A program made the translations under genes and the position numbers. Shown here piece after piece: positions 47,857 through 62,058 of a stretch of DNA of 64,000 nt; position 1 is the first letter of the stretch; the number at the start of each line of letters is the position of its first letter. Source of the DNA: Mediterraneibacter catenae (GTDB lineage: Bacteria > Bacillota > Clostridia > Lachnospirales > Lachnospiraceae); contig NZ_VMSO01000002.1 in NCBI RefSeq assembly GCF_008691045.1, positions 1 to 64,000 of the forward strand, read 5' to 3'. The notes under the pieces were generated by a model. The model was not told where the DNA came from. It saw nothing but the letters and a program-made list of their open reading frames with translations, and made no database searches.

Positions 47857-47932
47857 GAAATATAAGTTCAGGCCGCGCCATTCGGAAAACAATGGCTGGA
47901 AATATAAGCTCAGCCCGCGCCATTCGGAAAAC
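47857..47932. repeat. Tandem 34-base repeat, period 42
   Basis: Two 34-base copies (47857-47890 and 47899-47932) differ at only two positions and are separated by AATGGCTG. The unit is the right-hand end of the longer dispersed repeat described for 47899-47988. Confidence 0.85.
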
Positions 47933-47988
47933 CGCACTGGCGTGCTTACTGCGGCTGCACCGCTGTTTTCCTTATATACAGGCGCTCA
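47899..47988 (-). repeat. Dispersed intergenic repeat, copy A
   Basis: Read on the minus strand, this 90-base block aligns with 59276-59365 on the plus strand, with about 62 of 77 identical positions outside a short variable loop. Conserved parts include TGAGCGCCTG, AGCCGCAGT, the stem GCAC/GTGC and CGAATGGCGCG. Confidence 0.75.
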
Positions 47989-48087: not shown

Positions 48088-48105
48088 TTGTCAAATTATT
48101 AACAA
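48088..48105. promoter_or_regulatory. Probable Rex operator over the -35 box
   Basis: TTGTCAAATTATTAACAA matches the Rex consensus TTGTTAA-N4-TTAACAA at all but one position. Rex represses fermentation genes when NADH is low relative to NAD+. Its position over the -35 box fits repression. Confidence 0.65.
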
Positions 48106-48116
48106 TGTGATATGAT
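48088..48116 (+). promoter_or_regulatory. Promoter of the ldh-hdr-flx-frd operon
   Basis: TTGTCA (48088-48093) and TATGAT (48111-48116) are separated by exactly 17 bases. The start point should be near 48123, giving a leader of about 155 bases before ldh. Confidence 0.8.
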
Positions 48117-48277: not shown

Positions 48278-49225
48278 ATGAGCAGCAAAATTACTATCAT
48301 CGGCGCCGGAAGTGTCGGAGCTACAATCGCGTACAAGCTTTCCTATGAGGACTTCGCATCCGAGATCGTTATGATCGACATTAATAAGGAGAAAGTCGAA
48401 GGCGAAGTTATGGACATCGAGCAGGGCACATGTTTCAGAAGCCCGATTTCCATCATTGCAGGCGATTATGAGGATGCCAAAGGTTCTGATATCGTTATTA
48501 TCACATCCGGCATTGCGCGTAAGCCGGGTCAGACAAGAATTGAGCTTGCGCAGACAAATGTCAATATTATCAAATCTATCACACCGGAGATCGTAAAAGC
48601 AGCACCGGATGCTAAATATATCATCGTAAGCAACCCGGTTGACGTTCTGACTTATGTATTCACAAAGATCTCAGGACTTCCGGAAAACCAGATCATCGGA
48701 TCGGGAACACTGCTGGATACAGCACGTCTCCGCTACGGTCTGTCCAGACATTTCAACGTTGCACAGAAAAATATTCATGCTTATGTATACGGCGAGCACG
48801 GCGATTCTTCCTTCGTTCCGTGGTCAGGAGCTAATATTGCAAGTATGCCGATCGATGACTACTACAAGGCAATGAAAGATCTCGGAGCAGACCTTACAGA
48901 GCTTGACAAGCCGGCTATGGAAGAGTATGTGCACAAATCAGGCGGCCAGGTAATCGCTAAGAAAGGGGCTACTTTCTATGCAGTAGCTGTATCTGTCGTT
49001 GAACTGTGCAATCTGGTGCTTGCAGCTTCGGATTCTGTTGCGACAGTATCTTCTATGATGCACGGAGAGTATGGTGTGGATGACGTATGTTTAAGCGTGC
49101 TTTCACTGGTAGGACCGAACGGAGTACAGGGTAAGGTTCCAATGCACCTGACAGACGAAGAAGTAGAGAGACTTCAGGCAAGTGCAAATAAACTTAAAGA
49201 AGTAATCGCTCAGTTAGATATCTAA
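48278..49225 (+). CDS. ldh: NAD-dependent L-lactate dehydrogenase
   Basis: A 315-residue enzyme interconverting pyruvate/NADH and L-lactate/NAD+. The NAD fold is ITIIGAGSVGATIAYKL at residues 5-21. The substrate-specificity loop reads ARKPGQTRIEL: Gln at the key position marks lactate rather than malate dehydrogenase. SNPVDVLTYV, DTARLRYGLS and YVYGEHGDSSFVPWSG carry the catalytic Asp, Arg and His. AGAGGAG precedes the ATG at 48278; an earlier in-frame ATG has no ribosome site. It is the first gene of the redox operon, with 14 bases to hdrB. Confidence 0.94.
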   Translation: MSSKITIIGAGSVGATIAYKLSYEDFASEIVMIDINKEKVEGEVMDIEQGTCFRSPISIIAGDYEDAKGSDIVIITSGIARKPGQTRIELAQTNVNIIKSITPEIVKAAPDAKYIIVSNPVDVLTYVFTKISGLPENQIIGSGTLLDTARLRYGLSRHFNVAQKNIHAYVYGEHGDSSFVPWSGANIASMPIDDYYKAMKDLGADLTELDKPAMEEYVHKSGGQVIAKKGATFYAVAVSVVELCNLVLAASDSVATVSSMMHGEYGVDDVCLSVLSLVGPNGVQGKVPMHLTDEEVERLQASANKLKEVIAQLDI

Positions 49226-49239
49226 AGGAGGTAAACACT

Positions 49240-50037
49240 ATGAAATACAGCTATTTCCCCGGCTGTACGCTGAAGAACAAAGCAGTGGATCTGGATCACT
49301 ATGCCAGAGTGTCCGCAGAGGCTTTGGGCTTTGAGCTGGAAGAGATCAGCGAGTGGCAGTGCTGCGGCGGAGTATATCCGCTCGGCACGGACGAGATTGC
49401 GACAAAGCTTGCTTCCGTACGTGCGCTCAATGATGCAAAAGAGCACGGACAGGATCTTGTCACAGTCTGTTCAGCCTGTCATCACGTGATCAAAAGGGTA
49501 AATGATGACATGAAAAATGTCGATGATATCCGCACAAGGGCGAACAACTATATGAAACTCGACGAGCCATATGCCGGAGAGACAACAGTACTTCACTATC
49601 TTGAGGTACTCCGTGACCGGGTAGGATTCGACGAACTGAAGAAAAAAGTTGTAAAACCACTCACAGGAAAAAAGATCGGCGCTTATTACGGCTGCCTTCT
49701 TCTCCGTCCGGGCAAACTGATGGCTTTTGACGATCCGGAAAATCCGACGATCATGGAGGATTTCATCCGTGCCATTGGAGCGGAGCCTGTAATCTATCCT
49801 TACAGAAACGAGTGCTGCGGCGGATACATATCTCTGAAGGAAGAGGACATGTCCAAAAACATGTGCCGTAAGATTGAGGAGAGCGCGGCAGGTTTCGGCG
49901 CTGATATGCTGATCACAGCCTGTCCGCTGTGTATGTACAATCTGAACAAGAACAACGGCGGCAATCTGCCGGTATACTATTTCACAGAGCTTCTGGCAGA
50001 AGCGCTGGGACTTAAAGAGGAGGTGGATGAACAGTGA
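49240..50037 (+). CDS. hdrB: HdrB-like heterodisulfide reductase subunit (two CCG domains)
   Basis: A 265-residue protein with two complete CCG cysteine motifs. The first has Cys9, Cys41-Cys42-Gly and Cys77/Cys80; the second Cys152, Cys192-Cys193-Gly and Cys228/Cys231. In methanogen HdrB these bind two noncubane [4Fe-4S] clusters that cleave a disulfide. Here methanogen coenzymes are not expected, so it may serve an unknown thiol/disulfide or relay electrons to the fumarate reductase subunits further on. No membrane segment. Its stop overlaps the start of hdrC. Confidence 0.9.
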   Translation: MKYSYFPGCTLKNKAVDLDHYARVSAEALGFELEEISEWQCCGGVYPLGTDEIATKLASVRALNDAKEHGQDLVTVCSACHHVIKRVNDDMKNVDDIRTRANNYMKLDEPYAGETTVLHYLEVLRDRVGFDELKKKVVKPLTGKKIGAYYGCLLLRPGKLMAFDDPENPTIMEDFIRAIGAEPVIYPYRNECCGGYISLKEEDMSKNMCRKIEESAAGFGADMLITACPLCMYNLNKNNGGNLPVYYFTELLAEALGLKEEVDEQ

Positions 50038-50423
50038 AAACAGAACACAGTCGCGCAGAGATGATCAAAGAGATCAGCGGCGTGAATCCGCTGAAATGTA
50101 TGAAATGCGGTAAATGTTCCGCTTCCTGTCCCTCCTATAATGAGATGGATATCAAACCGCACCAGTTTGTCTCCTATGTGATCAACGAGGATATTGAGTC
50201 ACTGGTCAAATCAAAATCTCTCTGGAAATGCCTTTCCTGTTTTGCCTGTGTAGAGAGATGCCCGCGTGACGTAAAGCCGGGCAAGCTGATCGACGCTGCA
50301 AGACAGATCGTTGTGCGTGAGAGAGGACAGAACTATCTGCTGGCGGACGAGATCCCGGAACTGATCGATCCCGATACACCGCAGCAGCTTCTCGTAAGTG
50401 CACTCAGAAGATACAGGAGGTGA
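50034..50423 (+). CDS. hdrC: HdrC-like ferredoxin subunit
   Basis: A 129-residue soluble protein with two [4Fe-4S] motifs, CMKCGKCSASCPSYNEM near residue 19 and CLSCFACVERCPRDVKPGKL near residue 63. It links HdrA and HdrB electrically in soluble HdrABC complexes. It starts at a GTG that overlaps the hdrB stop, with GAGGAGG just upstream, so translation is coupled. No membrane helix. Confidence 0.9.
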   Translation: MKTEHSRAEMIKEISGVNPLKCMKCGKCSASCPSYNEMDIKPHQFVSYVINEDIESLVKSKSLWKCLSCFACVERCPRDVKPGKLIDAARQIVVRERGQNYLLADEIPELIDPDTPQQLLVSALRRYRR

Positions 50424-50429
50424 TAACAG

Positions 50430-52418
50430 GTGCAGAGGATAGGAGTATTTGTCTGCCACTGCGGATCTAATATCGCAGCTACGGTAGACGTAAAGAAAGT
50501 CGCTGAGATGGCGCTCCACGAGCCGGGAGTTGTTCATGCCGAGGACTATCAGTACATGTGTTCTGAGGCAGGGCAGGAGCTGATCCACAAGGCGATCAAA
50601 GAGAAACATCTGACCGGACTTGTCGTCTGTTCATGTTCTCCGCGTATGCACGAGACGACATTCAGAAATGCAGCGGAGAGAGCGGGACTTAACCCGTATA
50701 TGGTGGAGATCGCAAACATCCGTGAGCACTGTTCCTGGATCCATAAGGATATGGAAGAGGCGACGGAAAAGGCAGTCATCCTGATGCGTGCGGCAGTTGC
50801 GAAAGTAAACTTAAACGCACCGCTGAAACCGGGCGAGAGCCGTGTTACAAAGAGAGCGCTTGTGATCGGCGGCGGTATCGCAGGTATCCAGACAGCGCTC
50901 GATATCGCAGAGGCAGGATATCCGGTTGATATCGTGGAGAAGACCCCGAGTATCGGAGGAAGGATGTCGCAGCTCGACAAGACATTCCCGACACTGGACT
51001 GTTCATCCTGTATCCTGACGCCGAAGATGGGAGAAGTAAACGCCCATCCGCTCATCAATATCTATACATATAGTGAAGTAGAGAGCGTATCCGGTTTCGT
51101 GGGAGATTTCACAGTTGAGATCCGCAAGAAAGCAAGAAGCGTCGATATGAATAAATGTACGGGCTGCGGCGTATGTCAGGAGAAATGTCCGAGCAAGAAG
51201 ACGCCGAGCGAATTCAACCGCGGCCTGAATACAAGAAGTGCCATCTACACACCGTTTGCACAGGCGGTTCCGAACGTTCCGGTTATTGACCGTGATGCCT
51301 GCATCAAGTTCAAGACAGGAAAATGCGGTATCTGTTCGAAAGTGTGCCAGGCTGGCGCTATCGACTATGATCAGATCGACGAGATCGTTACAGAGAAATA
51401 CGGCGCGATCGTTGTCGCTACAGGATTCGACATGATCAAGCTTGACAAATATGATGAGTATGCATACAGCCAGAGCAAGGATGTCATCACATCTCTCGAG
51501 CTGGAGCGTATCATGAACGCTGCAGGACCGACAGGCGGACATCTGGAGCGTCTCTCCGACGGAAAGGCTCCGAAGGAGATCGTATTTATCCAGTGCGTGG
51601 GAAGCCGCTGCGCGGACGACAGGGGCAAGAGCTACTGTTCAAAAGTCTGCTGTATGTACACTGCAAAACACGCGATGCTCATCCGCGACAAATATCCGGA
51701 TACAAATGTGACGGTATTCTACATTGATGTGAGAACACCGGGCAAGAACTTCGATGAGTTCTACCGCAGAGCAGTAGAAGACTACGGTGTAAACTACATC
51801 AAAGGACAGGTCGGAAAAGTCATTCCACAGCCGAACGGAAAGCTGCTCGTACAGGGCGCTGACCTGATCGACAACAAACAGATCTTAAAAGAGGCTGATA
51901 TGGTTGTCCTTGCTGCTGCGATCGAGCCGAACCCGGATGTAAGAAAGATCGCTACTATGCTGACAGCAAGTATCGATACGAACAACTTCCTCACAGAAGC
52001 TCACGCGAAGCTTCGTCCGGTAGAGTCACCGACAGCCGGTATCTTCCTTTCCGGTGTATGCCAGGGACCGAAAGATATTCCGGAGACTGTATCTCAGGCA
52101 GGAGCTGCCGCTGTAAAGGCGATCGGACTTCTCGCCAAAGATAAACTGCTGACCAATCCGTGTACGGCACATTCCGACGAGCTGATGTGTAACGGATGCT
52201 CCCAGTGTGCGAATGTCTGCCCGTACGGAGCGATCACCTATGAAGATAAAGAGGTGAACGATCACGGAATCCGTGAGACAAGACGTATTGCGGTTGTAAA
52301 CGATGCGCTTTGTCAGGGATGCGGCGCTTGTACCGTAACATGTCCGTCCGGAGCAATGGACCTGCAGGGATTCTCGAACAGACAGATTCTAGCGGAGGTG
52401 GATGCGATATGTCTATAG
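50430..52418 (+). CDS. hdrA: HdrA-like FAD and iron-sulfur subunit
   Basis: A 662-residue flavoprotein. It opens with GVFVCHCGSNI (Cys9, Cys11). The FAD/thioredoxin-reductase fold is at residues ~142-170 (ALVIGGGIAGIQTALDIAEAG). Cys motifs follow: CSSCILTPKM, CTGCGVCQEKCPSKK (from residue 243), CGICSKVCQAGAI and CVGSRCADDRG with YCSKVCCMYTAKHA. Two C-terminal ferredoxin clusters close the chain (CNGCSQCANVCPYGAIT and CQGCGACTVTCPSGAMD). HdrA is the flavin-bifurcating hub in characterised HdrABC complexes. It starts at a GTG behind AGGAGG. Confidence 0.93.
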   Translation: MQRIGVFVCHCGSNIAATVDVKKVAEMALHEPGVVHAEDYQYMCSEAGQELIHKAIKEKHLTGLVVCSCSPRMHETTFRNAAERAGLNPYMVEIANIREHCSWIHKDMEEATEKAVILMRAAVAKVNLNAPLKPGESRVTKRALVIGGGIAGIQTALDIAEAGYPVDIVEKTPSIGGRMSQLDKTFPTLDCSSCILTPKMGEVNAHPLINIYTYSEVESVSGFVGDFTVEIRKKARSVDMNKCTGCGVCQEKCPSKKTPSEFNRGLNTRSAIYTPFAQAVPNVPVIDRDACIKFKTGKCGICSKVCQAGAIDYDQIDEIVTEKYGAIVVATGFDMIKLDKYDEYAYSQSKDVITSLELERIMNAAGPTGGHLERLSDGKAPKEIVFIQCVGSRCADDRGKSYCSKVCCMYTAKHAMLIRDKYPDTNVTVFYIDVRTPGKNFDEFYRRAVEDYGVNYIKGQVGKVIPQPNGKLLVQGADLIDNKQILKEADMVVLAAAIEPNPDVRKIATMLTASIDTNNFLTEAHAKLRPVESPTAGIFLSGVCQGPKDIPETVSQAGAAAVKAIGLLAKDKLLTNPCTAHSDELMCNGCSQCANVCPYGAITYEDKEVNDHGIRETRRIAVVNDALCQGCGACTVTCPSGAMDLQGFSNRQILAEVDAICL

Positions 52419-52852
52419 AAAAGAATGAAGAATTCAGACCAAAGATTGTGGCGTTCTGCTGTAACTGGTGCAGCTACGCCGGAGCGGATCTCGCGGGAAG
52501 CAGCCGTATGACCTACTCGGCGGACGTCAAGATCATCCGCGTTCCCTGCTCCTGCCGTGTCAACCCGATGTTTATTTTAAGAGCGTTTGAAAGGGGAGCG
52601 GACGGCGTTATCATGTGCGGTTGCCATCCGGGAGACTGCCATTATACTTCCGGTAACTTCTACGCAAGAAGACGTATGACCCTTCTCTTCTCCATGCTTG
52701 ATTACATCGGAGTGGAAAACGGCCGTACCCGTGTGGAGTGGGTATCAGCCGCAGAGGGGGCGAAGTTCTCACAGACAATGCATGAGTTTGTGGACAAGAT
52801 CACATCCCTCGGCAAAAACGTAAGATTGGAGGATTTAAGATGCAGGAATTAA
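52409..52852 (+). CDS. flxD: MvhD/FlxD-type iron-sulfur protein
   Basis: A 147-residue protein matching the MvhD family: VAFCCNWCSYAGADLAGSSRM, VPCSCRVNPMFILRAFERGADGVIMCGCHPGDCHY. It binds a [2Fe-2S] cluster and docks electron-donor modules onto HdrA. In hydrogenase-linked systems the donor is MvhAG; here the Flx proteins downstream take that place. The ATG overlaps the hdrA stop by ten bases and has GGAGGTGG upstream. Confidence 0.9.
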   Translation: MSIEKNEEFRPKIVAFCCNWCSYAGADLAGSSRMTYSADVKIIRVPCSCRVNPMFILRAFERGADGVIMCGCHPGDCHYTSGNFYARRRMTLLFSMLDYIGVENGRTRVEWVSAAEGAKFSQTMHEFVDKITSLGKNVRLEDLRCRN

Positions 52853-53814
52853 TCAACCGCGCAAAAGAGCTTCTGGCCGACGGAACTGTGGCAAGAGTGC
52901 TCGGATGGAAAGCCGGGGACCTGCCTTACAATCCGGAACCGGCTTACTTTGAGAAAGAAGAAGACTTTGCGGATTTCGTATATAACGGATTCTGCGGAGC
53001 AAACTTAAGCAAATATATGATCGAGGCTTCCAAACTGGAAGGCAAGACGCTTGTATGCTTAAAACCATGTGATACATACAGCTTCCAGGAGCTGATGAAA
53101 GAGCACCGTGTGGACAGAGATAAAGCGTATATCATCGGTGTGGGATGCAAAGGAAAGCTTGACATCGAGAAGATCAAAGCTATGGGGATCAAAGGTATCA
53201 AGAGTATCTCCGGTGCAGAGATCGAAGACGAGGCAGAGACGCTTACGATCGATACGATCTATGGAGAGAAGAGCTGTGCGTACACAGACGCTATGCTTGA
53301 GAGATGCCATGTATGCAAGGGCAAAGACCACATGGTATTTGACGAGATCATCGGCGAGTCCAAAGAGACAAAAGACGCAGACAGATTTGCAGAAGTAGAA
53401 AGAATAGAAGCTATGAGCCCGGAGGAGAAATTCGCTTTCTTCCAGAAGGAACTGAGCAAATGTATCCGCTGCAATGCCTGCCGTAACGTATGTCCGGCCT
53501 GCTCCTGCCGCAAGTGTGTGTTCGACAGCAACAAGTTCGACAGCGCGCAGAAGGCAAACGTTGATTCCTTCGAGGAAAAGATGTTCCATATTATCCGTGC
53601 TTTCCACGTTGCAGGAAGATGTACGGACTGTGGCGAGTGCAGCAGAGTCTGTCCTCAGGGAATCAGACTGCATCTGTTCAACCGCAAATTTATCAAAGAT
53701 ATCAACGAGCTCTACGGAGAATACCAGGCAGGTGCTGATCTGGAGCCGAGAACTCCGCTCACCAACTATGAGTTTGACGACGCAGAGCCGGGAATTGTGG
53801 CAGAAAGGGGATAA
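52840..53814 (+). CDS. flxB: FlxB-like iron-sulfur protein with FrhB-type domain
   Basis: A 324-residue protein. The N-terminal ~190 residues resemble the FrhB/FdhB-type domain (FVYNGFCGANLSKYMIEA, VCLKPCDTYSFQELMKEH, CHVCKGKDHMVFDEIIG). Two [4Fe-4S] motifs follow, CIRCNACRNVCPACSCRKC and CTDCGECSRVCPQGI. It overlaps flxD by 13 bases. In Flx modules such proteins pass electrons between the NADH-oxidising FlxA and HdrA. Assignment of B versus C within the module is by resemblance. Confidence 0.8.
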   Translation: MQELINRAKELLADGTVARVLGWKAGDLPYNPEPAYFEKEEDFADFVYNGFCGANLSKYMIEASKLEGKTLVCLKPCDTYSFQELMKEHRVDRDKAYIIGVGCKGKLDIEKIKAMGIKGIKSISGAEIEDEAETLTIDTIYGEKSCAYTDAMLERCHVCKGKDHMVFDEIIGESKETKDADRFAEVERIEAMSPEEKFAFFQKELSKCIRCNACRNVCPACSCRKCVFDSNKFDSAQKANVDSFEEKMFHIIRAFHVAGRCTDCGECSRVCPQGIRLHLFNRKFIKDINELYGEYQAGADLEPRTPLTNYEFDDAEPGIVAERG

Positions 53815-53817
53815 TGT

Positions 53818-54858
53818 ATGTATAAGATAGCGAAAGAAAATCTGACGGCATTATTTCAGAAGATTGCCGCAGAACAGGAATTATATCTTCCGGTAAGAAA
53901 CGAAGGCCAGGTAAACTTCGCCGCATGGTCGGAGGATGCACAGGTCGATATCGATACGTTAAAGACAGTAAAATCTCCGAAAGACGCCTTCTTCCCGCAG
54001 AGCGAGACGCTCTACACCTGTGTCAGGGACGGAAAGAAGATCAGCATTGAGCCTGAGGCGTTAAAAGAGCAGGATTTCGTTGTGTTCGGCATGAGAGCCT
54101 GTGATGTAAGAGGTGTGGAAGTGCTGGACAAAGTATTCCTCGTAGATCCGCTTGATACGTTCTATGCGGCAAGAAGAGATCACGGTACGATCGTTGCCCT
54201 TGCCTGCCACGAGCCGGAGGAAACATGCTTTTGTAAGGTGTTCGGCATTGACGCGGCTGATCCGGCTGCAGATGTTGCCACATGGATGATCGGAGAGGAT
54301 CTGTACTGGAAACCGCTTACAGAAAAGGGTGAGGCGCTTACAAAGGCAGTTGCTGACCTTCTTACAGAGGATGCAGCTGCGGATGAGGCTGTTGAAAAAG
54401 AGAAAGAGGCGATCCACAATATCATCGAGCAGCTTCCGTATACACATCTCTCTCTTGAGGGATGGAACGGAGATGTCCTCATGGAAAAATTCGAGGATCC
54501 GCTCTGGGATGAACTGTACAAACCGTGTCTTGCGTGCGGAACCTGTACATTTGTCTGCCCGACCTGCCAGTGCTATGACATCAAAGACTACGATGCAGGA
54601 AAGAACGGCGTGCAGAGATACCGCTGCTGGGATTCCTGTATGTACTCTGACTTCACGATGATGGCTCACGGCAATAACCGTAAATCACAGAAAGAGAGAT
54701 TCCGCCAGAGATTCATGCACAAACTGGTATACTTCCCGGCAAACAACGATGGAATGTATTCCTGTGTAGGATGCGGAAGATGCGTGGAGAAATGTCCGGA
54801 ATCCTTAAATATCGTAAAAGTTATCAAAGCATTTGCAAAACAGGGAGGTGAAAAGTAA
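53818..54858 (+). CDS. flxC: FlxC/sulfhydrogenase-beta-like iron-sulfur protein
   Basis: A 346-residue soluble protein of the HydB/AsrA type. It begins with YKIAKENLTALFQKIAAEQELYLPV and FVVFGMRACDVRGVEVLDKVF, and ends with two [4Fe-4S] motifs, CLACGTCTFVCPTCQCYDI and CVGCGRCVEKCPESLNI. The family partners with FAD/NAD(P)H-binding subunits like the next gene product to carry electrons from NAD(P)H. The stop and the next start overlap (TAATG). Confidence 0.83.
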   Translation: MYKIAKENLTALFQKIAAEQELYLPVRNEGQVNFAAWSEDAQVDIDTLKTVKSPKDAFFPQSETLYTCVRDGKKISIEPEALKEQDFVVFGMRACDVRGVEVLDKVFLVDPLDTFYAARRDHGTIVALACHEPEETCFCKVFGIDAADPAADVATWMIGEDLYWKPLTEKGEALTKAVADLLTEDAAADEAVEKEKEAIHNIIEQLPYTHLSLEGWNGDVLMEKFEDPLWDELYKPCLACGTCTFVCPTCQCYDIKDYDAGKNGVQRYRCWDSCMYSDFTMMAHGNNRKSQKERFRQRFMHKLVYFPANNDGMYSCVGCGRCVEKCPESLNIVKVIKAFAKQGGEK

Positions 54859-55712
54859 TGAGTGAATGTACATGTCACAAGAACTATACACTGGATACCC
54901 TGATCCCGAAAGTAGGCGTGATCACTGACATCCGCGAGGAGACGCCGGATGTTAAGACATTCCGTGTCAATGCTCCGGAGGGTGGCAAGCTCTTCGAGCA
55001 TATGCCGGGACAGTGCGCGATGCTCTGCGCTCCGGGAATCAGCGAAGGTATGTTTTCGATTACTTCTTCGCCGACTAATAAAGAATATCAGGAATTCAGC
55101 ATCAAGAAGTGCGGAGTGCTCACAGATTATCTCCACAGCCTTGAGGTAGGCGACGAGATCACGGTCAGAGGACCGTACGGCAATCATTTCCCTGTAGAGG
55201 ATAAACTCAAAGGAAAAGACCTGCTGTTCATCGCCGGAGGTATCGGACTTGCGCCGCTGCGTTCCGTTATCAATTACGTGCTGGACAACCGTGACGACTA
55301 CGGCACAGTGGATATCGTTTACGGATCACGTTCCGCCGACGATCTGGTTCAGTTGAAAGAGATCCAGGAAGTATGGATGAACGCTCCGGATGTCCATGTT
55401 CACCTGACCATTGACCGCGAGCAGGAAGGCTGGGACGGCCATGTGGGATTTGTCCCGAATTATGTGAAAGAACTGGGATTCGACGTAAACAAGACGGCTC
55501 TGATCTGCGGACCACCGATCATGATCAAGTTCACACTGGCCGGTCTTGAGGAACTCGGCTTCTCCAGAGAACAGGTCTATACGACACTGGAGCTTCGCAT
55601 GAAATGCGGAATCGGAAAATGCGGAAGATGTAACATCGGTTCAAAATATGTATGTAAAGACGGTCCGGTATTTCGGTGCGATGAAATCGATGAGATGCCG
55701 AATGAATACTAG
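54858..55712 (+). CDS. flxA: FlxA-like FAD/NAD(P)H-binding oxidoreductase
   Basis: A 284-residue ferredoxin-NADP+ reductase-type protein. GMFSITSSP binds FAD, LFIAGGIGLAPLRSVINY and LICGPPIMIKF bind the nicotinamide nucleotide, and MKCGIGKCGRCNIGSKYVC carries a C-terminal [2Fe-2S] cluster, as in PyrK and sulfhydrogenase gamma. It is the only NAD(P)H-binding subunit in the Hdr/Flx set and so the likely entry point for NADH electrons. Confidence 0.87.
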   Translation: MSECTCHKNYTLDTLIPKVGVITDIREETPDVKTFRVNAPEGGKLFEHMPGQCAMLCAPGISEGMFSITSSPTNKEYQEFSIKKCGVLTDYLHSLEVGDEITVRGPYGNHFPVEDKLKGKDLLFIAGGIGLAPLRSVINYVLDNRDDYGTVDIVYGSRSADDLVQLKEIQEVWMNAPDVHVHLTIDREQEGWDGHVGFVPNYVKELGFDVNKTALICGPPIMIKFTLAGLEELGFSREQVYTTLELRMKCGIGKCGRCNIGSKYVCKDGPVFRCDEIDEMPNEY

Positions 55713-55729
55713 GGAAAGGAAGAAATATC

Positions 55730-56404
55730 ATGGAAAATATGGTAAATGTATATTTTTTCGGTAAGAAATACAGTGTGCCGGCTGACCTGACGATCATGAC
55801 AGCTATGGAATATGCTGGTTATACGCTGAAAAGAGGATGCGGCTGCCGTCACGGCTTCTGCGGTGCCTGTGCTACGATCTACAGGATCAAGGGCAAAAAT
55901 GAGCTGAAGACCTGCCTTGCCTGTCAGACACAGGTAGAAGAGGGCATGTATGTGGCAACTGTTCCGTTCTTCCCGACAGACAAGAGAACATATGACATTG
56001 AAGACATCAAGCCGGAGCAGAGGATCATGATGGATCTCTATCCGGAAATCTACAGCTGCATCGGCTGTAACGCCTGCACAAAGGCCTGCACTCAGGACCT
56101 TAACGTTATGCAGTATATTGCATATGCACAGCGCGGCGAGTTCGAGAAGTGTGCGGAAGAGTCGTTCGACTGTATCGGATGCGGATGCTGTTCCGTAAGA
56201 TGTCCGGCAGAGATTTCCCACCCGATGGTAGGAGTCCTTGCAAGAAGACTTACAGGAAAATACATTGCACCGGAATCCAAACACCTGACAGAGCGTGTGG
56301 AAGAGATCCATCACGGCGACTATGATCAGCTGATCGAGCAGATCATGCAGAAGCCGATTGAAGAGATGCAGGAACTTTACAACAACAGAGAGATCGAGAA
56401 ATAA
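55730..56404 (+). CDS. frdB: Fumarate reductase iron-sulfur subunit, non-quinone type
   Basis: A 224-residue protein. The N-terminal plant-type ferredoxin domain has Cys39, Cys44, Cys47 and Cys62 or 65 for a [2Fe-2S] cluster. The helical part has two complete [4Fe-4S] motifs (Cys110/113/116/120 and Cys148/151/154/158). Membrane-bound succinate dehydrogenases and fumarate reductases instead have one [4Fe-4S] and one [3Fe-4S] cluster next to quinone, so this form suggests a soluble donor. AAAGGAAG precedes the ATG. The flavoprotein gene follows after 12 bases. Confidence 0.87.
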   Translation: MENMVNVYFFGKKYSVPADLTIMTAMEYAGYTLKRGCGCRHGFCGACATIYRIKGKNELKTCLACQTQVEEGMYVATVPFFPTDKRTYDIEDIKPEQRIMMDLYPEIYSCIGCNACTKACTQDLNVMQYIAYAQRGEFEKCAEESFDCIGCGCCSVRCPAEISHPMVGVLARRLTGKYIAPESKHLTERVEEIHHGDYDQLIEQIMQKPIEEMQELYNNREIEK

Positions 56405-56416
56405 GGAGGGAAGATC

Positions 56417-58018
56417 ATGTTTACACCGGAAATGATGGAATCCGTAAAGAAAGTGGAGGCCACCAGAGCACAGCGTCTGGGTGTAGAGCCGAGACGAATG
56501 ACGGCGGATGAGAAAGATGCTCTCCTTAAGGAATTCCATCCTGATTACAGGGAAGAGGCATTTGCAGAGATCAAGGTAGGCCCGAACAAGGGACAGAAAG
56601 CGCCGAAAGAGCTGGTGCATCTGCTCCATTCTAACAGCCGCCTTCTCGCTGAGAAAGTTGATATTAACAAAGTAGACTACGATGTTGACGTGCTCGTCAT
56701 CGGAGGCGGCGGCGCAGGCGCGTCTGCAGCAATCGAGGCAAACGAGGCGGGAGCTAATGTCATGATCGTGACAAAACTCCGTATCGGCGATGCCAACACG
56801 ATGATGGCAGAGGGCGGTATCCAGGCTGCCGACAAAGAGAATGATTCTCCTGTACAGCATTATCTGGATGCATTCGGAGGCGGACACTTTGCCGCAAGAC
56901 CGGAACTCTTAAGACGTCTTGTTATGGAAGCGCCGGATGCGATCAAATGGCTCAATGAGCTGGGTGTTATGTTTGATAAGGATGAGACAGGCCGTATGAT
57001 CACAACACACGGCGGCGGAACATCCAGAAAGAGAATGCACGCCTGCAAGGATTACTCCGGAGCTGAGATCATGCGTACACTCCGCGATGAAGTATTAAAC
57101 CGCCAGATCCCGGTTGCTGAGTTCACTGTAGCAGTAGAACTGATCAGAGATGACAGAGGCCAGGTGGCAGGAGCGGTTCTTCAGAACCTGGAGACAGAAG
57201 ATTACCTTGTTGCAAAGGCTAAGACGGTTATCATCGCTACAGGCGGTGCGGGACGTATGCATTATCAGGGATTCCCGACTTCAAACCACTATGGCGCTAC
57301 AGCAGACGGTCTGATCCTCGGATACCGTATGGGAGCTCCGCTCCTGTATCAGGACACGATCCAGTATCACCCGACAGGAGTTGCATTCCCGTCCCAGATT
57401 TTCGGCGCACTCGTAACAGAGAAAGTACGTTCCGTAGGTGCACAGCTTGTAAACGTGGACGGTGAGGCGTTCATGCATCCGCTGGAGACACGTGATGTGG
57501 CTGCATCAGGTATTATCCGCGAGTGTACAGCGCGCGGCAAGGGCGTGAACACACCGCTTGGAAGCGGCGTATGGCTTGATACTCCGATGATCGAGATGAT
57601 CGGCGGACCGGGAACGATCGAGAAACGGATCCCGGCGATGCTCCGTATGTACATGAAATATGATATCGATATGAGAAAACTTCCGATTCTTGTATACCCG
57701 ACACTGCACTACCAGAACGGCGGACTTGAGATCGGCGGAGACGGATTTACAAAAGTAATCGACAACCTGCTTGTAGCAGGAGAGGCTGTCGGCGGTATTC
57801 ATGGAAGAAACCGTCTGATGGGCAACTCGCTTCTGGATATCATCGTATTTGGACGCAATGCAGGTAAGGCTGCCGCTGCGAAAGCGAAGAATGTAGAGCT
57901 GGGTAATATGAATCTGGATCACATTCAGGCATACGCTGAGGAGTTAAAAGAGGCAGGAATTGACACCGGTGATGTATCCCCGCTCCTTCTTCCGAAGTAT
58001 GCAAGACATGAGAGATAG
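56417..58018 (+). CDS. frdA: Soluble fumarate reductase flavoprotein subunit
   Basis: A 533-residue flavoprotein of the SdhA/FrdA family. The FAD fold starts only at residue 91 (VLVIGGGGAGASAAIEANEAG), after an 88-residue N-terminal extension unusual for the family. Catalytic positions are kept: His318-Pro-Thr, Arg359 (the likely proton donor), His431 and the GRNRLMGNSLLD loop. The His that binds FAD covalently in quinone-linked enzymes is replaced (DANTMMAEGG, Asn127), so FAD should be non-covalent. No hydrophobic anchor subunit is encoded nearby. It reduces fumarate to succinate, most likely with electrons from the Hdr/Flx proteins. Confidence 0.88.
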   Translation: MFTPEMMESVKKVEATRAQRLGVEPRRMTADEKDALLKEFHPDYREEAFAEIKVGPNKGQKAPKELVHLLHSNSRLLAEKVDINKVDYDVDVLVIGGGGAGASAAIEANEAGANVMIVTKLRIGDANTMMAEGGIQAADKENDSPVQHYLDAFGGGHFAARPELLRRLVMEAPDAIKWLNELGVMFDKDETGRMITTHGGGTSRKRMHACKDYSGAEIMRTLRDEVLNRQIPVAEFTVAVELIRDDRGQVAGAVLQNLETEDYLVAKAKTVIIATGGAGRMHYQGFPTSNHYGATADGLILGYRMGAPLLYQDTIQYHPTGVAFPSQIFGALVTEKVRSVGAQLVNVDGEAFMHPLETRDVAASGIIRECTARGKGVNTPLGSGVWLDTPMIEMIGGPGTIEKRIPAMLRMYMKYDIDMRKLPILVYPTLHYQNGGLEIGGDGFTKVIDNLLVAGEAVGGIHGRNRLMGNSLLDIIVFGRNAGKAAAAKAKNVELGNMNLDHIQAYAEELKEAGIDTGDVSPLLLPKYARHER

Positions 58019-58032
58019 GAAAGGGAGAGAAA

Positions 58033-59202
58033 ATGTTTTTAGTTAACTGGTTTCAGGAAAGTGTAATGGGGGAAACCCTGATGGTCTTATTCCTTGTAGC
58101 CACCATCGGCTATCTTGTGGGAAGCATTACGATCAAAGGGGTCGAGCTGGGGACGGCAGGCGTGCTGCTTGTCGCCCTGGTATTCGGTCATTTCCTCGGA
58201 CATGATGAAGCTCTGGTCGAAGGCCTGGGAATGTTTCAGGATCTGGGACTTATCTGTTTTGTTACGTCTGTCGGCTTTATTGCCGGACCGAAGTTCTTCC
58301 GTAACTTTAAGATCAATGCGAAATCTTATATTCTGCTCGGATTTATCATCATTGCGATCGGTGCGCTTGTTACTTCAGGCATCATTACGATCGCAGGAGT
58401 TCCGACTGATATCACAGTCGGTATGATGTCCGGAGCCCTGACGAGTACGCCGGGACTTGCAGCGGCGCTTGATGCCACAGGTTCCGCCAACGCCTCCATC
58501 GGATACGGTATTGCCTATCCGTTCGGCGTAGTAGGAGTGGTGCTCTTCGTACAGCTGATGCCGAAGATCCTGCATACAGATATGGATGCGGAGCGCGCGC
58601 AGTTTGAAGCTGCCCAGAATGTGGGAGATATAGCGAAAAAAGATAAACTGTTCCACGTAGATCCGATGGGATTTTTCCCGTATGCGCTGGCGATCGCTCT
58701 CGGTATCGTCCTGGCGAAGATCGTGATCCCGCTTCCGGGCGGAGCGCAGTTCTCTTTGGGAACGTCAGGCGGCCCGCTGATCGCGGGTCTGATCCTCGGT
58801 CACTTCGGCCACGCCGGAAAGATCAGCTTTCATGTGGAAAAATCTGTGCTTGAGTGCTTAAGAGAATTCGGTCTTGCGCTGTTCCTGATCGGAGCAGGTG
58901 TGGAGGCCGGATCGGGATTCATCGAAATCCTCAAGGAACACGGACTGATCCTGTTCGTGTATGGTGCACTGATCACACTGATCCCGATGATCGTCGGATA
59001 CTTTGTTGCCACAAAGCTGATGAAACTGAGTCTGTTCAACACACTAGGCTCCATCTGCGGAGGGATGACAAGTACACCGGCCCTGGGAACACTGATCCGT
59101 GTGACAGGAACGGACGATGTGGCATCAGCTTATGCGGCTACATATCCGGTAGCGCTTGTGTTCGTCGTGCTGGCCTGCCAGTTTATCGGAATATTCTTAT
59201 GA
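58033..59202 (+). CDS. Aspartate:alanine exchanger (AAE/YidE-YbjL) type permease
   Basis: A 389-residue membrane protein with about 10-11 hydrophobic segments. Two family repeats are visible: MSGALTSTPGLAAALDATGSANASIGYGIAYPFG and ICGGMTSTPALGTLIRVTGTDDVASAYAATYPVA. The family's founding member, AspT, exchanges aspartate for alanine. Lying between fumarate reductase and fumarase, this one could import aspartate, malate or fumarate or export succinate. It lacks the TrkA-C domains of larger relatives. Substrate is inferred from context. Confidence 0.8.
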   Translation: MFLVNWFQESVMGETLMVLFLVATIGYLVGSITIKGVELGTAGVLLVALVFGHFLGHDEALVEGLGMFQDLGLICFVTSVGFIAGPKFFRNFKINAKSYILLGFIIIAIGALVTSGIITIAGVPTDITVGMMSGALTSTPGLAAALDATGSANASIGYGIAYPFGVVGVVLFVQLMPKILHTDMDAERAQFEAAQNVGDIAKKDKLFHVDPMGFFPYALAIALGIVLAKIVIPLPGGAQFSLGTSGGPLIAGLILGHFGHAGKISFHVEKSVLECLREFGLALFLIGAGVEAGSGFIEILKEHGLILFVYGALITLIPMIVGYFVATKLMKLSLFNTLGSICGGMTSTPALGTLIRVTGTDDVASAYAATYPVALVFVVLACQFIGIFL

Positions 59203-59442
59203 TAGAATCGTGGGAGCGCAGAGCGCGGAACGATTCGTAGATATCATAAAAGATCCGGTTGCTCCATGTATGAGCTGAGCGCCTGCTAATGAGCAAAGAA
59301 GCGGCGTAGCCGCAGTGAGCACTGTCAGGTGCGGCTTTGCGAATGGCGCGAGCCGAACGAAAAATAAAACAACAGATATAAGGCTGTCCCTTAGGGCAGC
59401 CTGAAAAGTATCAACTTTAAAACAGGAAAGGAGTTGACTTCC
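59203..59442. other. Intergenic region between permease and fumarase genes
   Basis: It contains the stem GAATCGT/ACGATTC (59205-59236), repeat copy B, and a hairpin GGCTG..CAGCC with inner CCC/GGG (about 59382-59401). No clear terminator U-tract or promoter was found, so the fumarase genes are probably expressed at least partly from the upstream promoter. Confidence 0.5.
59276..59365 (+). repeat. Dispersed intergenic repeat, copy B
   Basis: Homologous to copy A at 47899-47988 in the opposite orientation. It folds as GCGGC-GTA-GCCGC, then GCAC-TGTCAG-GTGC, then a GGCT/AGCC helix enclosing GCGAATGGCGC. The apical loop of the second stem differs in length and sequence between copies while the stem is kept. 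Confidence 0.75.
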
Positions 59443-60285
59443 ATGCGTGAAATCAATGTAAGTACACTCACCGATGTAATTGAGAGACTCTGCATCGATG
59501 CCAACAACCATCTCCCGGGAGATGTAAAATGTGCCATCCGCGACTGCCGCGCCTGCGAGGACGGCGAGATCGCACAGGGCGTCCTGGACAACATCATCGA
59601 GAACTTCGAGATCGCGGACAGCGAGAATGTACCGATCTGCCAGGATACAGGTATGGCGTGTGTGTTCCTTGAGATCGGACAGGACGTACATCTTGTCGGC
59701 GGTGATTTGAAAGAGGCTGTTGACGAGGGTGTACGCCGCGGATATACAAACGGATATCTGAGAAAATCAGTCGTAAAAGATCCGGTGCGCCGCGGTAATA
59801 CCGGCGACAATACACCTGCCATGCTTTATACAGAGATCGTTCCGGGCGAGAATATTAAGGTTACGGTAGGACCGAAAGGATTCGGAAGCGAGAATATGAG
59901 CCAGATCCGTATGTTCAAACCGTCAGCAGGCCTTCAGGGAATCAAAGATTTCATCATCGAGGCTGTAGAGACAGCAGGACCGAATCCGTGTCCTCCTATG
60001 GTAGTGGGCGTCGGTATCGGCGGTACATTTGACAAATGTGCACTCCTTGCGAAAAAGGCGCTGATGAGGCCACTTGATTCTTCCAATCCGGATCCGTTCT
60101 ATGCAGATCTTGAGAAAGAAATGCTCGAGAAGATCAACGAACTGGGCATCGGACCTCAGGGATTCGGCGGAAAGACGACAGCGATCGGACTCAATATTGA
60201 GACTATGCCGACACATATTGCAGGAATGCCCTGCGCGGTAAATATCAACTGTCATGTGACACGCCACAAATCGGAGGTGATATAA
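59443..60285 (+). CDS. Class I fumarate hydratase, alpha subunit
   Basis: A 280-residue subunit of the oxygen-sensitive [4Fe-4S] fumarase/tartrate dehydratase family. Cysteine ligand candidates are in [13 protein letters not shown] and [32 protein letters not shown] is also family-typical. It hydrates fumarate to malate reversibly; in fermentation it would run from malate to fumarate to feed the reductase. I start at the ATG at 59443, with AAAGGAG 9 bases upstream, rather than the TTG three codons earlier. Confidence 0.92.
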
Positions 60286-60843
60286 ATGGCAAGAAAGATT
60301 ACATTACCACTCACAGAGGAACTTGCTAAAACACTCCATGCAGGAGATCAGGTGCTTCTTACGGGAACGATCTATACATCCCGTGATGCCGGACACAAGA
60401 GAATGTGCGAGGCACTTGCCAAGGGTGAGGATATTCCGTTCGATCCGAAAGATGCGACGATTTACTATGTAGGACCGACTCCGGCGAAACCGGGACAGGT
60501 CATCGGAAGCGCAGGACCGACAACAAGCGGACGTATGGATGCATACGCGCCGACAATGATGTCAGTGGGCGCGCGCGGCATGATCGGAAAGGGTGCACGC
60601 CTTCCGGAAGTGGTTGACGCCATGAAGAAATACAGCGGCGTGTACTTTGGTGCTATCGGAGGTGCAGGCGCACTGCTCGCAAAATGTATCAAGAAAGCAG
60701 AGCTTATCGCTTTCGAAGATCTCGGGGCAGAGGCTCTCAGAAAACTCTATGTAGAGGATATGCCGGTTGTTGTCATTATTGACAGCGAGGGAAATAACCT
60801 CTATGAAGAAGGAAGAAAGGCTTACCTTGATTCTAAAAAATAA
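60286..60843 (+). CDS. Class I fumarate hydratase, beta subunit
   Basis: A 185-residue C-terminal-type subunit: LHAGDQVLLTGTIYTSRDAGHKRM, YYVGPTPAKPGQVIGSAGPTTSGRMD, MIGKGARLPEV, YFGAIGGAGALLAKCIKKAE and GAEALRKLYVEDMPVVVIIDSEG all match the family. It pairs with the alpha subunit encoded immediately before, with the ATG directly after the alpha stop and GGAGGTGATATAA as ribosome site. A strong terminator closes the operon. Confidence 0.92.
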   Translation: MARKITLPLTEELAKTLHAGDQVLLTGTIYTSRDAGHKRMCEALAKGEDIPFDPKDATIYYVGPTPAKPGQVIGSAGPTTSGRMDAYAPTMMSVGARGMIGKGARLPEVVDAMKKYSGVYFGAIGGAGALLAKCIKKAELIAFEDLGAEALRKLYVEDMPVVVIIDSEGNNLYEEGRKAYLDSKK

Positions 60844-60865: not shown

Positions 60866-60910
60866 GCCGGAACACAAGTGTCGCTTGTGTTCCGGCTATC
60901 TTTTTGTTTC
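60866..60910 (+). terminator. Rho-independent terminator of the redox operon
   Basis: GCCGGAACACAAG (60866-60878) pairs perfectly with CTTGTGTTCCGGC (60884-60896) around TGTCG, followed by TATCTTTTTGTTT. Confidence 0.92.
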
Positions 60911-61167: not shown

Positions 61168-62058
61168 ATGACAAATGATACTATGTCAATGATGTTACCC
61201 GTCAACCGTACTTACAAATCAACCGTATTTATCATGCTGTTTGAGGACAGAAATAATCTGTTGGAACTGTATAATGGGATGAGCGGGAAACATTATACAA
61301 ATCCGGAATTGTTGGAGATCAATACACTTGAGAATGCAATCTATATGTCAATCAAAAATGATATTTCATTTTTGATCGACGGGCGTCTCTCGTTGTACGA
61401 GCATCAGTCTACGTATAGCCCGAATCTTCCGTTGCGTTTTTTGTTCTATATTTCGCATTTGTATTCCAGAATGACGAAAGATGATAATCTGTATGGTACA
61501 AAGAAAGTTCATATTCCCGAACCGGAGTTTGTTATCTTTTATAATGGAAGAGAAGAAATGCCAGAGCGGCAGGTGCTGAAATTATCAGATATGTACACAA
61601 CAAAGGACAAGCAGGTGAGGTTGGAACTTGAAGCTGTAATGCTAAACATATCAGGAGAGAATAACCATAAATTAAAAGCAGCATGTCATACCTTGAGGGA
61701 ATATGCTATTTATACGGACAAAATACGGAAGTATACAGAGATAATGGGCCTGTCTGATGCAGTAGAACGGGCAATACAGGAGTGTATTGAGCAAGGTGTA
61801 TTGAAAGATTTTCTGGAGAGGCACAGAACGGAGGCGAAAGCGATGAGTATATTCGAATATGATCAGGAGAAGCATATGCGTCAGGAGAGAGAAGCTGCCT
61901 GGGAGGATGGGCATTTGGCAGGTATAGAAGATGGACTAAAGAGCCAGATAGAAAAGAAGCTCGCCAAAGGGAAGACTCTGACGGAGATTGCTGATGAGCT
62001 AGAGGAAACAGAAGAACGCATCAGAGAACTGACTGACAAGATTAAAGGAAAAGAGTAG
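61168..62058 (+). CDS. Rpn-family recombination-promoting nuclease / PD-(D/E)XK transposase-like protein
   Basis: A 296-residue protein. It starts VNRTYKSTVFIMLFEDRNNLLELYN and continues ISFLIDGRLSLYEHQSTYSPNLPLRFLFYI, where Asp and Glu-x-Gln fit the nuclease core of the Rpn/PDDEXK_2 family. The C-terminal ~60 residues are charged and helical (EDGLKSQIEKKLAKGKTLTEIADELEETEERIREL). Such genes occur in many copies in Lachnospiraceae genomes. AAGGAGG precedes the ATG. There are no inverted repeats of an insertion sequence around it. Confidence 0.85.
   Translation: MTNDTMSMMLPVNRTYKSTVFIMLFEDRNNLLELYNGMSGKHYTNPELLEINTLENAIYMSIKNDISFLIDGRLSLYEHQSTYSPNLPLRFLFYISHLYSRMTKDDNLYGTKKVHIPEPEFVIFYNGREEMPERQVLKLSDMYTTKDKQVRLELEAVMLNISGENNHKLKAACHTLREYAIYTDKIRKYTEIMGLSDAVERAIQECIEQGVLKDFLERHRTEAKAMSIFEYDQEKHMRQEREAAWEDGHLAGIEDGLKSQIEKKLAKGKTLTEIADELEETEERIRELTDKIKGKE

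What the first reader, a model, noticed from the sequence alone, without database searches (positions are those of the whole stretch)
48278..60843. Operon for a soluble, probably electron-bifurcating fumarate reductase built from Hdr, Flx and Frd modules
Seen: twelve genes in one direction encode lactate dehydrogenase, HdrB, HdrC, HdrA, MvhD/FlxD, FlxB, FlxC, FlxA, FrdB-like, FrdA-like, a permease and two fumarase subunits. Many neighbours overlap or lie within 20 bases. Known: HdrABC complexes split electron pairs by flavin bifurcation, Flx modules feed them NADH, and thiol:fumarate reductase shows that Hdr- and Frd-type proteins can be combined. Inferred: NADH oxidation is coupled to fumarate reduction and ferredoxin reduction in the cytoplasm. 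That would conserve energy from fumarate without a quinone or membrane enzyme. I know of no characterised complex with exactly this composition.
Basis: partly seen in the sequence, partly recalled or inferred. Interest (0 to 1): 0.9.

Follow-up and report, generated by a model that had tools for sequence, protein, structure and literature searches.

The report
Hdr-Flx-linked soluble fumarate reductase operon
A gut bacterium with no sign of quinone synthesis carries one gene set that probably turns oxaloacetate into succinate and uses the last step to charge ferredoxin; the idea is already in print for other bacteria, but the sequences show that it is widespread and hint at how it is wired.

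Summary
The operon is real and at the stated coordinates. It has thirteen genes, not twelve, and the first is by its specificity residue a malate, not a lactate, dehydrogenase (Arg102 in 90 of 90 readable orthologue rows; a Gln102 homologue lies elsewhere in the genome). The unit thus encodes oxaloacetate -> malate -> fumarate -> succinate plus an AspT-family carrier. The nine-gene core HdrBCA-FlxDBCA-FrdBA is complete in 107 of 107 loci not cut by a contig end (106 in this order). FrdA keeps the fumarate-reductase catalytic residues, with Asn at the covalent-flavin position (130 of 130 rows); FrdB and HdrB show E-type cysteine patterns; HdrA keeps both published bifurcation residues (110 of 110). 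The genome shows no UbiA or Sdh_cyt and has Rnf. Best reading: an E-type fumarate reductase docked on an Hdr-Flx bifurcating engine, NADH -> ferredoxin + fumarate. That proposal is in print for Pseudoclostridium thermosuccinogenes (PMC7282089), and a Tfr-Flx-Hdr link for tubeworm symbionts (PMC6315080), so this is a new member of a proposed kind for which I found no biochemical test. Added here: the malate dehydrogenase, distribution, an aspartase variant, and HdrCB-FrdBA mini-operons pointing to HdrB -> FrdB. Bifurcation is undemonstrated.

The parts
48088..48116 (+). promoter-like site (TTGTCA-17-TATGAT, TG before the -10)
   Evidence: consensus scan, 10 of 12 matches; such sites are barely above chance here
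48278..49225 (+). malate dehydrogenase of the LDH-like type (reader: lactate dehydrogenase)
   Evidence: Ldh_1_N/C; Arg at LDH position 102 in 90 of 90 readable orthologue rows; other homologue with Gln102 at C2:75061-75981. Against: NCBIfam scores it as L-LDH above cut-off (346 and 343 bits), with one malate dehydrogenase subfamily model just above its cut-off (283.6 against 283)
49240..50037 (+). HdrB / SdhE-like: two CCG domains, ten cysteines for two non-cubane [4Fe-4S] clusters
   Evidence: CCG; SdhE model 144 bits, HdrB model 141 bits, both below curated cut-offs; ten Cys invariant in 108 of 108 rows
50034..50423 (+). HdrC, two [4Fe-4S] clusters
   Evidence: Fer4_8; HdrC models best but below cut-off
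50430..52418 (+). HdrA, FAD, putative bifurcation site; K413/E359 equal K409/E356 of M. thermolithotrophicus HdrA
   Evidence: full-length match to solved HdrA 5odc, 689 bits; residues in 110 of 110 loci; role of residues: PMC12054007 passages
52409..52852 (+). FlxD / MvhD
   Evidence: FlpD, 179 bits
52840..53814 (+). FlxB
   Evidence: Fer4_8 and, below its cut-off, FrhB_FdhB_C; 59 of 391 class genomes
53818..54858 (+). FlxC, sulfhydrogenase-beta/AsrA-like
   Evidence: Fer4_22; ShyB/HydB/AsrA models, below cut-offs
54858..55712 (+). FlxA, NAD(P)-binding flavoprotein, proposed entry point for NADH
   Evidence: FAD_binding_6, NAD_binding_1, DHODB Fe-S
55730..56404 (+). FrdB: [2Fe-2S] + two [4Fe-4S], E-type pattern, no CCG domain
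   Evidence: Fer2_4 + dicluster; C39/C44/C47/C65 and two four-cysteine sets (C110/113/116/120, C148/151/154/158) in 133 of 133 rows
56417..58018 (+). FrdA: fumarate reductase flavoprotein with ~88-aa N-terminal extension, profile matches ending near residue 512, Asn in place of the covalent-FAD His
   Evidence: FAD_binding_2; catalytic residues and Asn127 in 130 of 130 rows; model pLDDT 87.8, top Foldseek hit E. coli FrdA
58033..59202 (+). AspT/YidE-family permease, probable dicarboxylate carrier (succinate export or exchange; inferred)
   Evidence: Asp-Al_Ex; AspT/YidE/YbjL domain over cut-off, both aspartate:alanine antiporter models below cut-off
59443..60285 (+). class I fumarase, alpha subunit
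   Evidence: PF05681; fumarate hydratase equivalog 413 bits, cut-off 276; tartrate dehydratase alpha 187 bits, cut-off 365
60286..60843 (+). class I fumarase, beta subunit
   Evidence: PF05683; Fe-S hydro-lyase equivalog 295 bits, cut-off 238
60866..60896 (+). terminator-like hairpin after the last gene
   Evidence: 14-pair stem with a T-rich tail

Best explanation
The operon encodes the reductive C4 branch of a fermenter that probably lacks quinones: oxaloacetate -> malate (MDH) -> fumarate (FumAB) -> succinate (FrdBA), with an AspT-family carrier. FrdBA is built like an E-type fumarate reductase core that uses HdrB (as its SdhE) and HdrC (as its FrdF), but instead of serving a quinone these two connect to HdrA. 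Proposed path: NADH -> FlxA -> FlxB/FlxC -> FlxD -> FAD of HdrA, where electron pairs are split: one electron to ferredoxin, the other through HdrC -> HdrB -> FrdB -> non-covalent FAD of FrdA -> fumarate. Net: 2 NADH + fumarate + 2 Fd(ox) -> 2 NAD+ + succinate + 2 Fd(red). Rnf can then use the reduced ferredoxin. Shown: gene content, conservation, residues, no UbiA or Sdh_cyt hit, presence of Rnf and PEPCK. Inferred: one complex, the path, the direction, bifurcation.
For: Nine core genes in 107 of 107 untruncated loci. In the class survey 54 of 391 genomes have FrdB and all 54 also have FlxB. HdrA K409/E356 equivalents in 110 of 110. FrdA catalytic equivalents of E. coli H232, T244, E245, R287, H355, R390 in 130 of 130 rows; fumarate reductase fold. 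The neighbouring fumarate source changes: fumarase here, aspartase in Ilyobacter polytropus. Hdr-Flx-FrdBA appears in three places of the FrdBA tree, with three gene orders. HdrC-HdrB beside FrdB without HdrA or Flx in 5 of 38 loci outside the class, FrdA following in 4, the fifth cut by its contig end. No UbiA (controls 14 of 14 positive), no Sdh_cyt (controls 7 of 14 positive); RnfC with Rnf neighbours; ATP-PEPCK. About -33 to -49 kJ/mol from standard potentials.
Against: I found no biochemical demonstration. HdrABC homologues do not prove bifurcation (PMC5861303), and the Moorella MetFV-HdrABC-MvhD complex did not reduce ferredoxin (PMC8578096). The same FrdBA family lacks any nearby Hdr in 17 of 38 genomes outside the class (12 of the 17 with over 8.8 kb read on both sides of FrdB), so FrdBA does not need Hdr as such. 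In D. vulgaris the Flx-Hdr acceptor is thought to be DsrC, not fumarate (PMC10920352). The FrdB-FrdA readthrough model was poor (pLDDT 63.6) and HdrB-FrdB docking could not be modelled. NADH rather than NADPH is inferred from family only.
Confidence: 0.7

Rival explanations
1. A soluble but non-bifurcating NADH:fumarate reductase: the Hdr-Flx proteins only conduct electrons from NADH to FrdBA.
For: FlxA has an NAD-binding fold; the Moorella MetFV-HdrABC-MvhD complex did not reduce ferredoxin (PMC8578096 passages); NADH to fumarate alone is strongly downhill, -68 kJ/mol.
Against: HdrA keeps K409 and E356 equivalents in 110 of 110 loci, residues proposed to mark bifurcating HdrA (PMC12054007); seven extra subunits would be an expensive wire.
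Confidence: 0.15
2. Two separate enzymes in one operon: Hdr-Flx reduces a disulfide or a DsrC-like carrier, and FrdBA takes electrons from the resulting thiols, like thiol:fumarate reductase.
For: HdrB has both CCG motifs (108 of 108 rows), the site of disulfide chemistry in methanogens; in D. vulgaris the Flx-Hdr acceptor is thought to be DsrC (PMC10920352); TfrA is the best NCBIfam model of FrdA (325 bits, below its 718 cut-off).
Against: FrdB lacks the C-terminal CCG domain that TfrB has, so it has no thiol site of its own; none of the 13 genes looks like a thiol or DsrC-type carrier.
Confidence: 0.08
3. The complex runs in reverse (confurcation): succinate plus reduced ferredoxin give NADH.
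For: Hdr complexes can in principle run either way; related FrdBA occurs in genomes whose lifestyle I could not determine.
Against: Uphill by about 33-49 kJ/mol under standard conditions; Asn replaces the covalent-FAD His in 130 of 130 rows, and loss of that bond is recalled to impair succinate oxidation more than fumarate reduction; PEPCK, malate dehydrogenase and fumarase fit a succinate producer.
Confidence: 0.04
4. FrdA reduces another unsaturated acid (for example aconitate, crotonate or an aromatic acrylate), not fumarate.
For: Distant family members lie beside aconitase, PrpF and MmgE/PrpD genes (L261, L262), which suggests other substrates there.
Against: Fumarase in the operon, aspartase beside the Ilyobacter copy, fumarate-reductase catalytic residues kept; the L261/L262 group branches apart.
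Confidence: 0.03

Closest known systems
'Succinate operon' of Pseudoclostridium thermosuccinogenes (PMC7282089, passages; preprint by Koendjbiharie and van Kranenburg 2019 seen only as a citation)
   Same: fumarase, Flx-Hdr genes, two-gene fumarate reductase and a putative succinate transporter in one operon; ferredoxin-coupled fumarate reduction proposed
tfrAB-flxABCD-hdrABC in reverse TCA clusters of tubeworm symbionts and Thioflavicoccus (PMC6315080, passages)
   Same: TfrAB-type fumarate reductase genes interspersed with flxABCD-hdrABC and a proposed direct electron route, with Rnf genes nearby
   Different: part of CO2 fixation together with korABCD; reductase described as TfrAB; not compared by sequence here
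FlxABCD-HdrABC of Desulfovibrio vulgaris (described in PMC10920352, passages; Ramos 2015 seen only as a citation)
   Same: same kind of NADH-to-Hdr subunits
   Different: acceptor thought to be DsrC, not a fumarate reductase
E-type Sdh/Frd: Syntrophobacter frdABEF and Wolinella SdhABE (PMC3570798, PMC2680327, passages)
   Same: FrdB/SdhB with a second [4Fe-4S] instead of [3Fe-4S]; ten-cysteine HdrB-like subunit; no transmembrane helix subunit
   Different: treated there as quinone-linked; here HdrA-Flx is attached and no UbiA was found; FrdA here has an N-terminal extension and ends shortly after the FAD domain
Thiol:fumarate reductase TfrAB of methanogens
   Same: Frd and Hdr modules combined; TfrB fuses FrdB-like and HdrB-like parts
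   Different: no HdrA or Flx, donor is CoM-SH plus CoB-SH (recalled); FrdB here lacks the CCG part
MvhAGD-HdrABC (methanogen heterodisulfide reductase)
   Same: HdrA related over its whole length (5odc, 689 bits); same HdrC-HdrB chain
   Different: donor is hydrogenase, acceptor is CoM-S-S-CoB

Membership tests
Flx-Hdr enzymes | HdrA with K409/E356 equivalents plus HdrB, HdrC and FlxABCD in one unit | tested here: met
Flx-Hdr enzymes | NADH-dependent ferredoxin reduction coupled to a high-potential acceptor | not testable with these tools
   needs an enzyme assay
E-type succinate:quinone oxidoreductase / fumarate reductase | FrdB with [2Fe-2S] and two [4Fe-4S] clusters, not [3Fe-4S] | tested here: met
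   cysteine sets in 133 of 133 rows; feature as given in PMC2680327
E-type succinate:quinone oxidoreductase / fumarate reductase | SdhE-like subunit with ten-cysteine CCG motif | tested here: met
   HdrB, ten Cys in 108 of 108 rows; but SdhE model 144 bits is far below its cut-off of 500
E-type succinate:quinone oxidoreductase / fumarate reductase | quinone as partner | tested here: not met
   no UbiA in the genome (controls 14 of 14 positive); indirect, since uptake of quinones or a UbiA-free route is not excluded; so it is built like E-type but not filed as a quinone enzyme
Classical quinol:fumarate reductase | membrane anchor subunits and covalent FAD | tested here: not met
   no Sdh_cyt hit (controls 7 of 14 positive) and none beside FrdBA; Asn at the covalent-FAD position in 130 of 130 rows; FrdC/FrdD families not searched
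Thiol:fumarate reductase TfrAB | TfrB with fused C-terminal CCG domain | tested here: not met
   FrdB of 224 aa has no CCG match
P. thermosuccinogenes type succinate operon | fumarase + Flx-Hdr + two Frd genes + putative transporter in one operon | tested here: met
   by published description, not by sequence comparison
L-lactate dehydrogenase | Gln at position 102 of the substrate loop (recalled) | tested here: not met
   Arg in 90 of 90 readable orthologue rows, although the L-LDH models score above cut-off

The most novel reading that the evidence does not exclude
FrdBA of this type is a quinone-free plug-in fumarate reductase core. HdrB and HdrC are its native docking partners, as in the HdrC-HdrB-FrdB-FrdA mini-operons, and different donor engines (FlxABCD-HdrA, multi-HdrA assemblies with FlxD, membrane FMN/cytochrome modules) have been attached to it repeatedly; Flx-HdrA stands in three places of the tree with three gene orders (gain and loss not told apart). 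Hdr bifurcation would then be a general way for quinone-lacking gut Clostridia to gain ferredoxin from making succinate.
Probability: 0.45. Interest if true: 0.7.

Novelty: new member of a known kind. Interest (0 to 1): 0.5.

Why it matters
If fumarate reduction charges ferredoxin in quinone-free gut Firmicutes, succinate formation would drive Rnf ion pumping without a respiratory membrane enzyme. That would change energy budgets for the Lachnospiraceae that carry the operon (Blautia, Mediterraneibacter and relatives) and add fumarate to the acceptors of HdrA-type bifurcation. Named strains and Ilyobacter polytropus carry it, so the open question is directly testable.

Tried and rejected
AlphaFold job 1 (FrdB-FrdA read through the TAA between them, 34 rows at least 71% identical to the window) gave a poor model (pLDDT 63.6) and was not used. 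HdrB-FrdB docking: the 5 HdrCB-FrdB loci were checked for an in-frame readthrough and none is in frame, so it was not modelled. Co-evolution statistics were not run: too few independent sequences. 'FrdA is really NadB' was rejected: an FAD_binding_2 protein beside nadA and nadC lies elsewhere (L209). 'FumAB is tartrate dehydratase' was rejected by curated cut-offs. 'Hdr-Flx and Frd are always together' was rejected outside the class: 17 of 38 loci have FrdBA without Hdr; five of the 17 (L243, L244, L251, L258, L279) were read for less than 4 kb on one side. The divergent Flx-Hdr cluster L205 has FrdA-like stretches a few kb away (30% over 307 and 50% over 66 residues), so 'without Frd' there means without this FrdB. 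A third FrdA-like hit in the genome (C8:50592, 28%) was not identified. FrdC/FrdD anchors, MenD and MqnA were not searched; the case for no quinone synthesis rests on UbiA alone. The 'viral' fold library was not used; 'pdb_via' was not available.

The FrdBA tree is a quick tree of 60 rows that I chose: the window, 20 of the 132 near loci, and 39 of 40 distant ones (L264 has no FrdA). Long rows (L242, L259, L280, L277, L261) are unsure in place; labels depend on the stretch read; the five label changes are gains or losses, not told apart. Row counts (130, 133, 108, 110, 90) include a few duplicate loci (four pairs with identical FrdB DNA).

Because of PMC6315080 I lowered the interest from 0.55 to 0.5, and the odds of the novel case from 0.5 to 0.45 because gain and loss are not separated.

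Full report
Observation. Eleven of 12 junctions are between -13 and +17 nt; a 240-nt gap separates the permease from FumA. The longest terminator-like stem of the region follows the last gene (60866-60896); a promoter-like site lies at 48088-48116, but such sites are barely above chance here (27 against 18.8 +/- 5.0). The host is probably a Mediterraneibacter-like Lachnospiraceae: the FrdB protein is 100% identical in three 'Candidatus Mediterraneibacter' records.

First gene. In the alignments shown to solved LDHs the residue facing Gln102 is Arg; one of the five, 1y6j, named L-lactate dehydrogenase, has Arg as well, so the name of a deposit does not settle it. Arg is found in 90 of 90 operon orthologue rows that could be read (83 by one motif, 7 by a variant; the 91st, L159, is truncated before the loop). 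The genome has another homologue, 42% identical, with Gln. That Gln102 to Arg turns LDH into malate dehydrogenase is recalled knowledge. With fumarase and FrdBA this makes an oxaloacetate-to-succinate set; an ATP-type PEPCK is elsewhere in the genome.

Fumarate reductase. FrdA keeps the equivalents of E. coli FrdA H232, T244, E245, R287, H355 and R390 in 130 of 130 rows, window included (numbering and roles recalled). At the covalent-FAD histidine all 130 have Asn, and so have the 39 distant loci with a FrdA. Before the FAD domain there are 88-99 residues, and profile matches end near residue 512 of 533. AlphaFold on 54 rows gave pLDDT 87.8, pTM 0.90; Foldseek ranks E. coli FrdA first. Its best paralogue in the genome lies with nadA and nadC and is NadB by context; a third, weak hit was not identified. 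FrdB has cysteines for one [2Fe-2S] and two [4Fe-4S] clusters, the pattern PMC2680327 calls characteristic of E-type enzymes (passages). HdrB carries ten invariant cysteines (108 of 108 rows); its two best NCBIfam models are SdhE (144 bits) and HdrB (141 bits), both below cut-off.

HdrA. It aligns end to end with solved HdrA. K409 and E356, reported to stabilise the FAD intermediate and proposed to mark bifurcating HdrA (PMC12054007 passages), are present in the window (K413, E359) and in 110 of 110 loci; three rows missed by my first patterns (L059, L079, L083) were read individually and then recounted.

Conservation. Of 132 loci (52 of the 53 other class-survey hits, and the best 80 of 346 named ones; 128 distinct by FrdB DNA), 107 have the whole nine-gene core, and the other 25 run out of sequence 0-238 bases upstream of their first core gene. 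106 keep the window's order; L059 has fumarase and FrdBA in front. The malate dehydrogenase is present in 88 of 101 loci with over 1.3 kb upstream of HdrB, and FumA in 80 of 106 with over 4 kb downstream of FrdA. In 391 genomes of the class, FrdB occurs in 54 and FlxB in 59; all 54 are among the 59. Of the other five, one contig (G032) ends inside FlxA, and four (G037, G065, G070, G155) hold a divergent Flx-Hdr, FlxB 31-35% identical in its best stretch, without this FrdB; one of these (L205) has FrdA-like stretches a few kb away. Of the 16 same-family genomes listed, 2 carry FrdB, the window's included, so the distribution is patchy.

Outside the class. A phylum sample found FrdB in 38 further genomes (39 of 398 with the window). 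All 38 were fetched: 5 have full Hdr-Flx; 11 have HdrA-like stretches (several per locus) with FlxD/FlxB-like matches but no FlxA or FlxC; 5 have only HdrC-HdrB next to FrdB, with FrdA in 4 and one cut by its contig end; 17 have no Hdr nearby, 12 of them with over 8.8 kb read on both sides. Examples among the 17: fumarase with malic enzyme (L243), FMN-binding and multihaem cytochrome genes (L250, L260), and ferredoxin-cytochrome b561 fusions with aconitase or PrpF (L261, L262). Ilyobacter polytropus (Fusobacteriota) carries aspartase-HdrBCA-FlxDBCA-FrdBA on its plasmid pILYOP01, FrdB 66% identical; the aspartase passes the subfamily model (682 bits, cut-off 510) but not the aspA equivalog (648, cut-off 681). 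A 60-row FrdBA tree needs at least five changes of the Hdr-Flx label and places Hdr-Flx rows in three parts: the Clostridia with Ilyobacter; L059, L245, L246, L252 and L265 with FrdBA in front; and L277 with HdrC before HdrB (quick tree, some rows long, gain and loss not told apart).

Interpretation. The mini-operons suggest that HdrBC and FrdBA are a natural pair, as in the E-type frdABEF of Syntrophobacter (PMC3570798 passages). HdrBC is also the standard exit of HdrA. Joining the two gives NADH -> Flx -> HdrA -> HdrC -> HdrB -> FrdB -> FrdA, with ferredoxin as second acceptor. The genome shows no UbiA (controls 14 of 14 positive) and no Sdh_cyt (controls 7 of 14 positive), and has RnfC with Rnf neighbours. 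With standard potentials (fumarate +33 mV recalled) the coupled reaction releases about 49 (Fd -420 mV) to 33 (Fd -500 mV) kJ/mol. Not shown: the complex itself, ferredoxin reduction, NADH specificity. Published cautions: PMC5861303 (homologues do not prove bifurcation), PMC8578096 (the Moorella complex did not reduce ferredoxin), PMC10920352 (D. vulgaris Flx-Hdr acceptor probably DsrC).

Prior art. PMC7282089 (passages) describes a fumarase, Flx-Hdr, fumarate reductase and putative transporter operon in P. [quoted passage not shown] PMC6315080 (passages) reports tfrAB interspersed with flxABCD-hdrABC in tubeworm symbionts and Thioflavicoccus and suggests a complex. My searches (listings capped at 25 of 34, 30 of 146 and 10 of 11) showed no biochemical test of such an enzyme; most listed papers were not opened, and bioRxiv preprints and most subscription papers are not held.

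Noticed in passing
window 47857-47937 and 59329-59356 (inverted): A dispersed intergenic repeat lies upstream of the operon (two copies 42 nt apart) and, inverted, in the permease-FumA gap; its core CGCGCCATTCG occurs 31 times in the genome against 0 for the reversed control. It looks REP-like.
   Followed up: partly
window 61168-62058: A 296-codon ORF after the operon has no Pfam or NCBIfam match at 0.001.
   Followed up: partly
L261 6930-7913 and L262 6956-7942, with neighbours: Distant FrdBA copies sit beside a ferredoxin-cytochrome b561 fusion and aconitase (L261) or PrpF and MmgE/PrpD genes (L262), suggesting a related reductase for another unsaturated acid such as aconitate.
   Followed up: partly
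L250 10661-11590, L260 6676-8304: FMN-binding Fe-S proteins, and in L260 a NapC/NirT- and c7-like cytochrome, beside FrdBA and fumarase hint at a membrane-linked donor for the same FrdBA core.
   Followed up: partly
L255, L257, L268-L270, L272-L276, L278: Eleven phylum-level loci carry repeated HdrA-like stretches and FlxD/FlxB-like sequence before FrdBA; one such 472-aa ORF (L257 10376-11791) has no Pfam hit at 1e-5.
   Followed up: partly
L203, L204, L205, L206: Divergent Flx-Hdr clusters without a tblastn match to this HdrB or FrdB but with several HdrA-like stretches; their acceptor is unknown.
   Followed up: no
L242 (Cupriavidus metallidurans CH34 megaplasmid): FrdB (33%) and FrdA (46%) homologues in a betaproteobacterium, no Hdr within the 5 kb read on each side.
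   Followed up: no
PDB 1y6j: A solved 'L-lactate dehydrogenase' also has Arg at the 102 position and may be a malate dehydrogenase; not checked.
   Followed up: no
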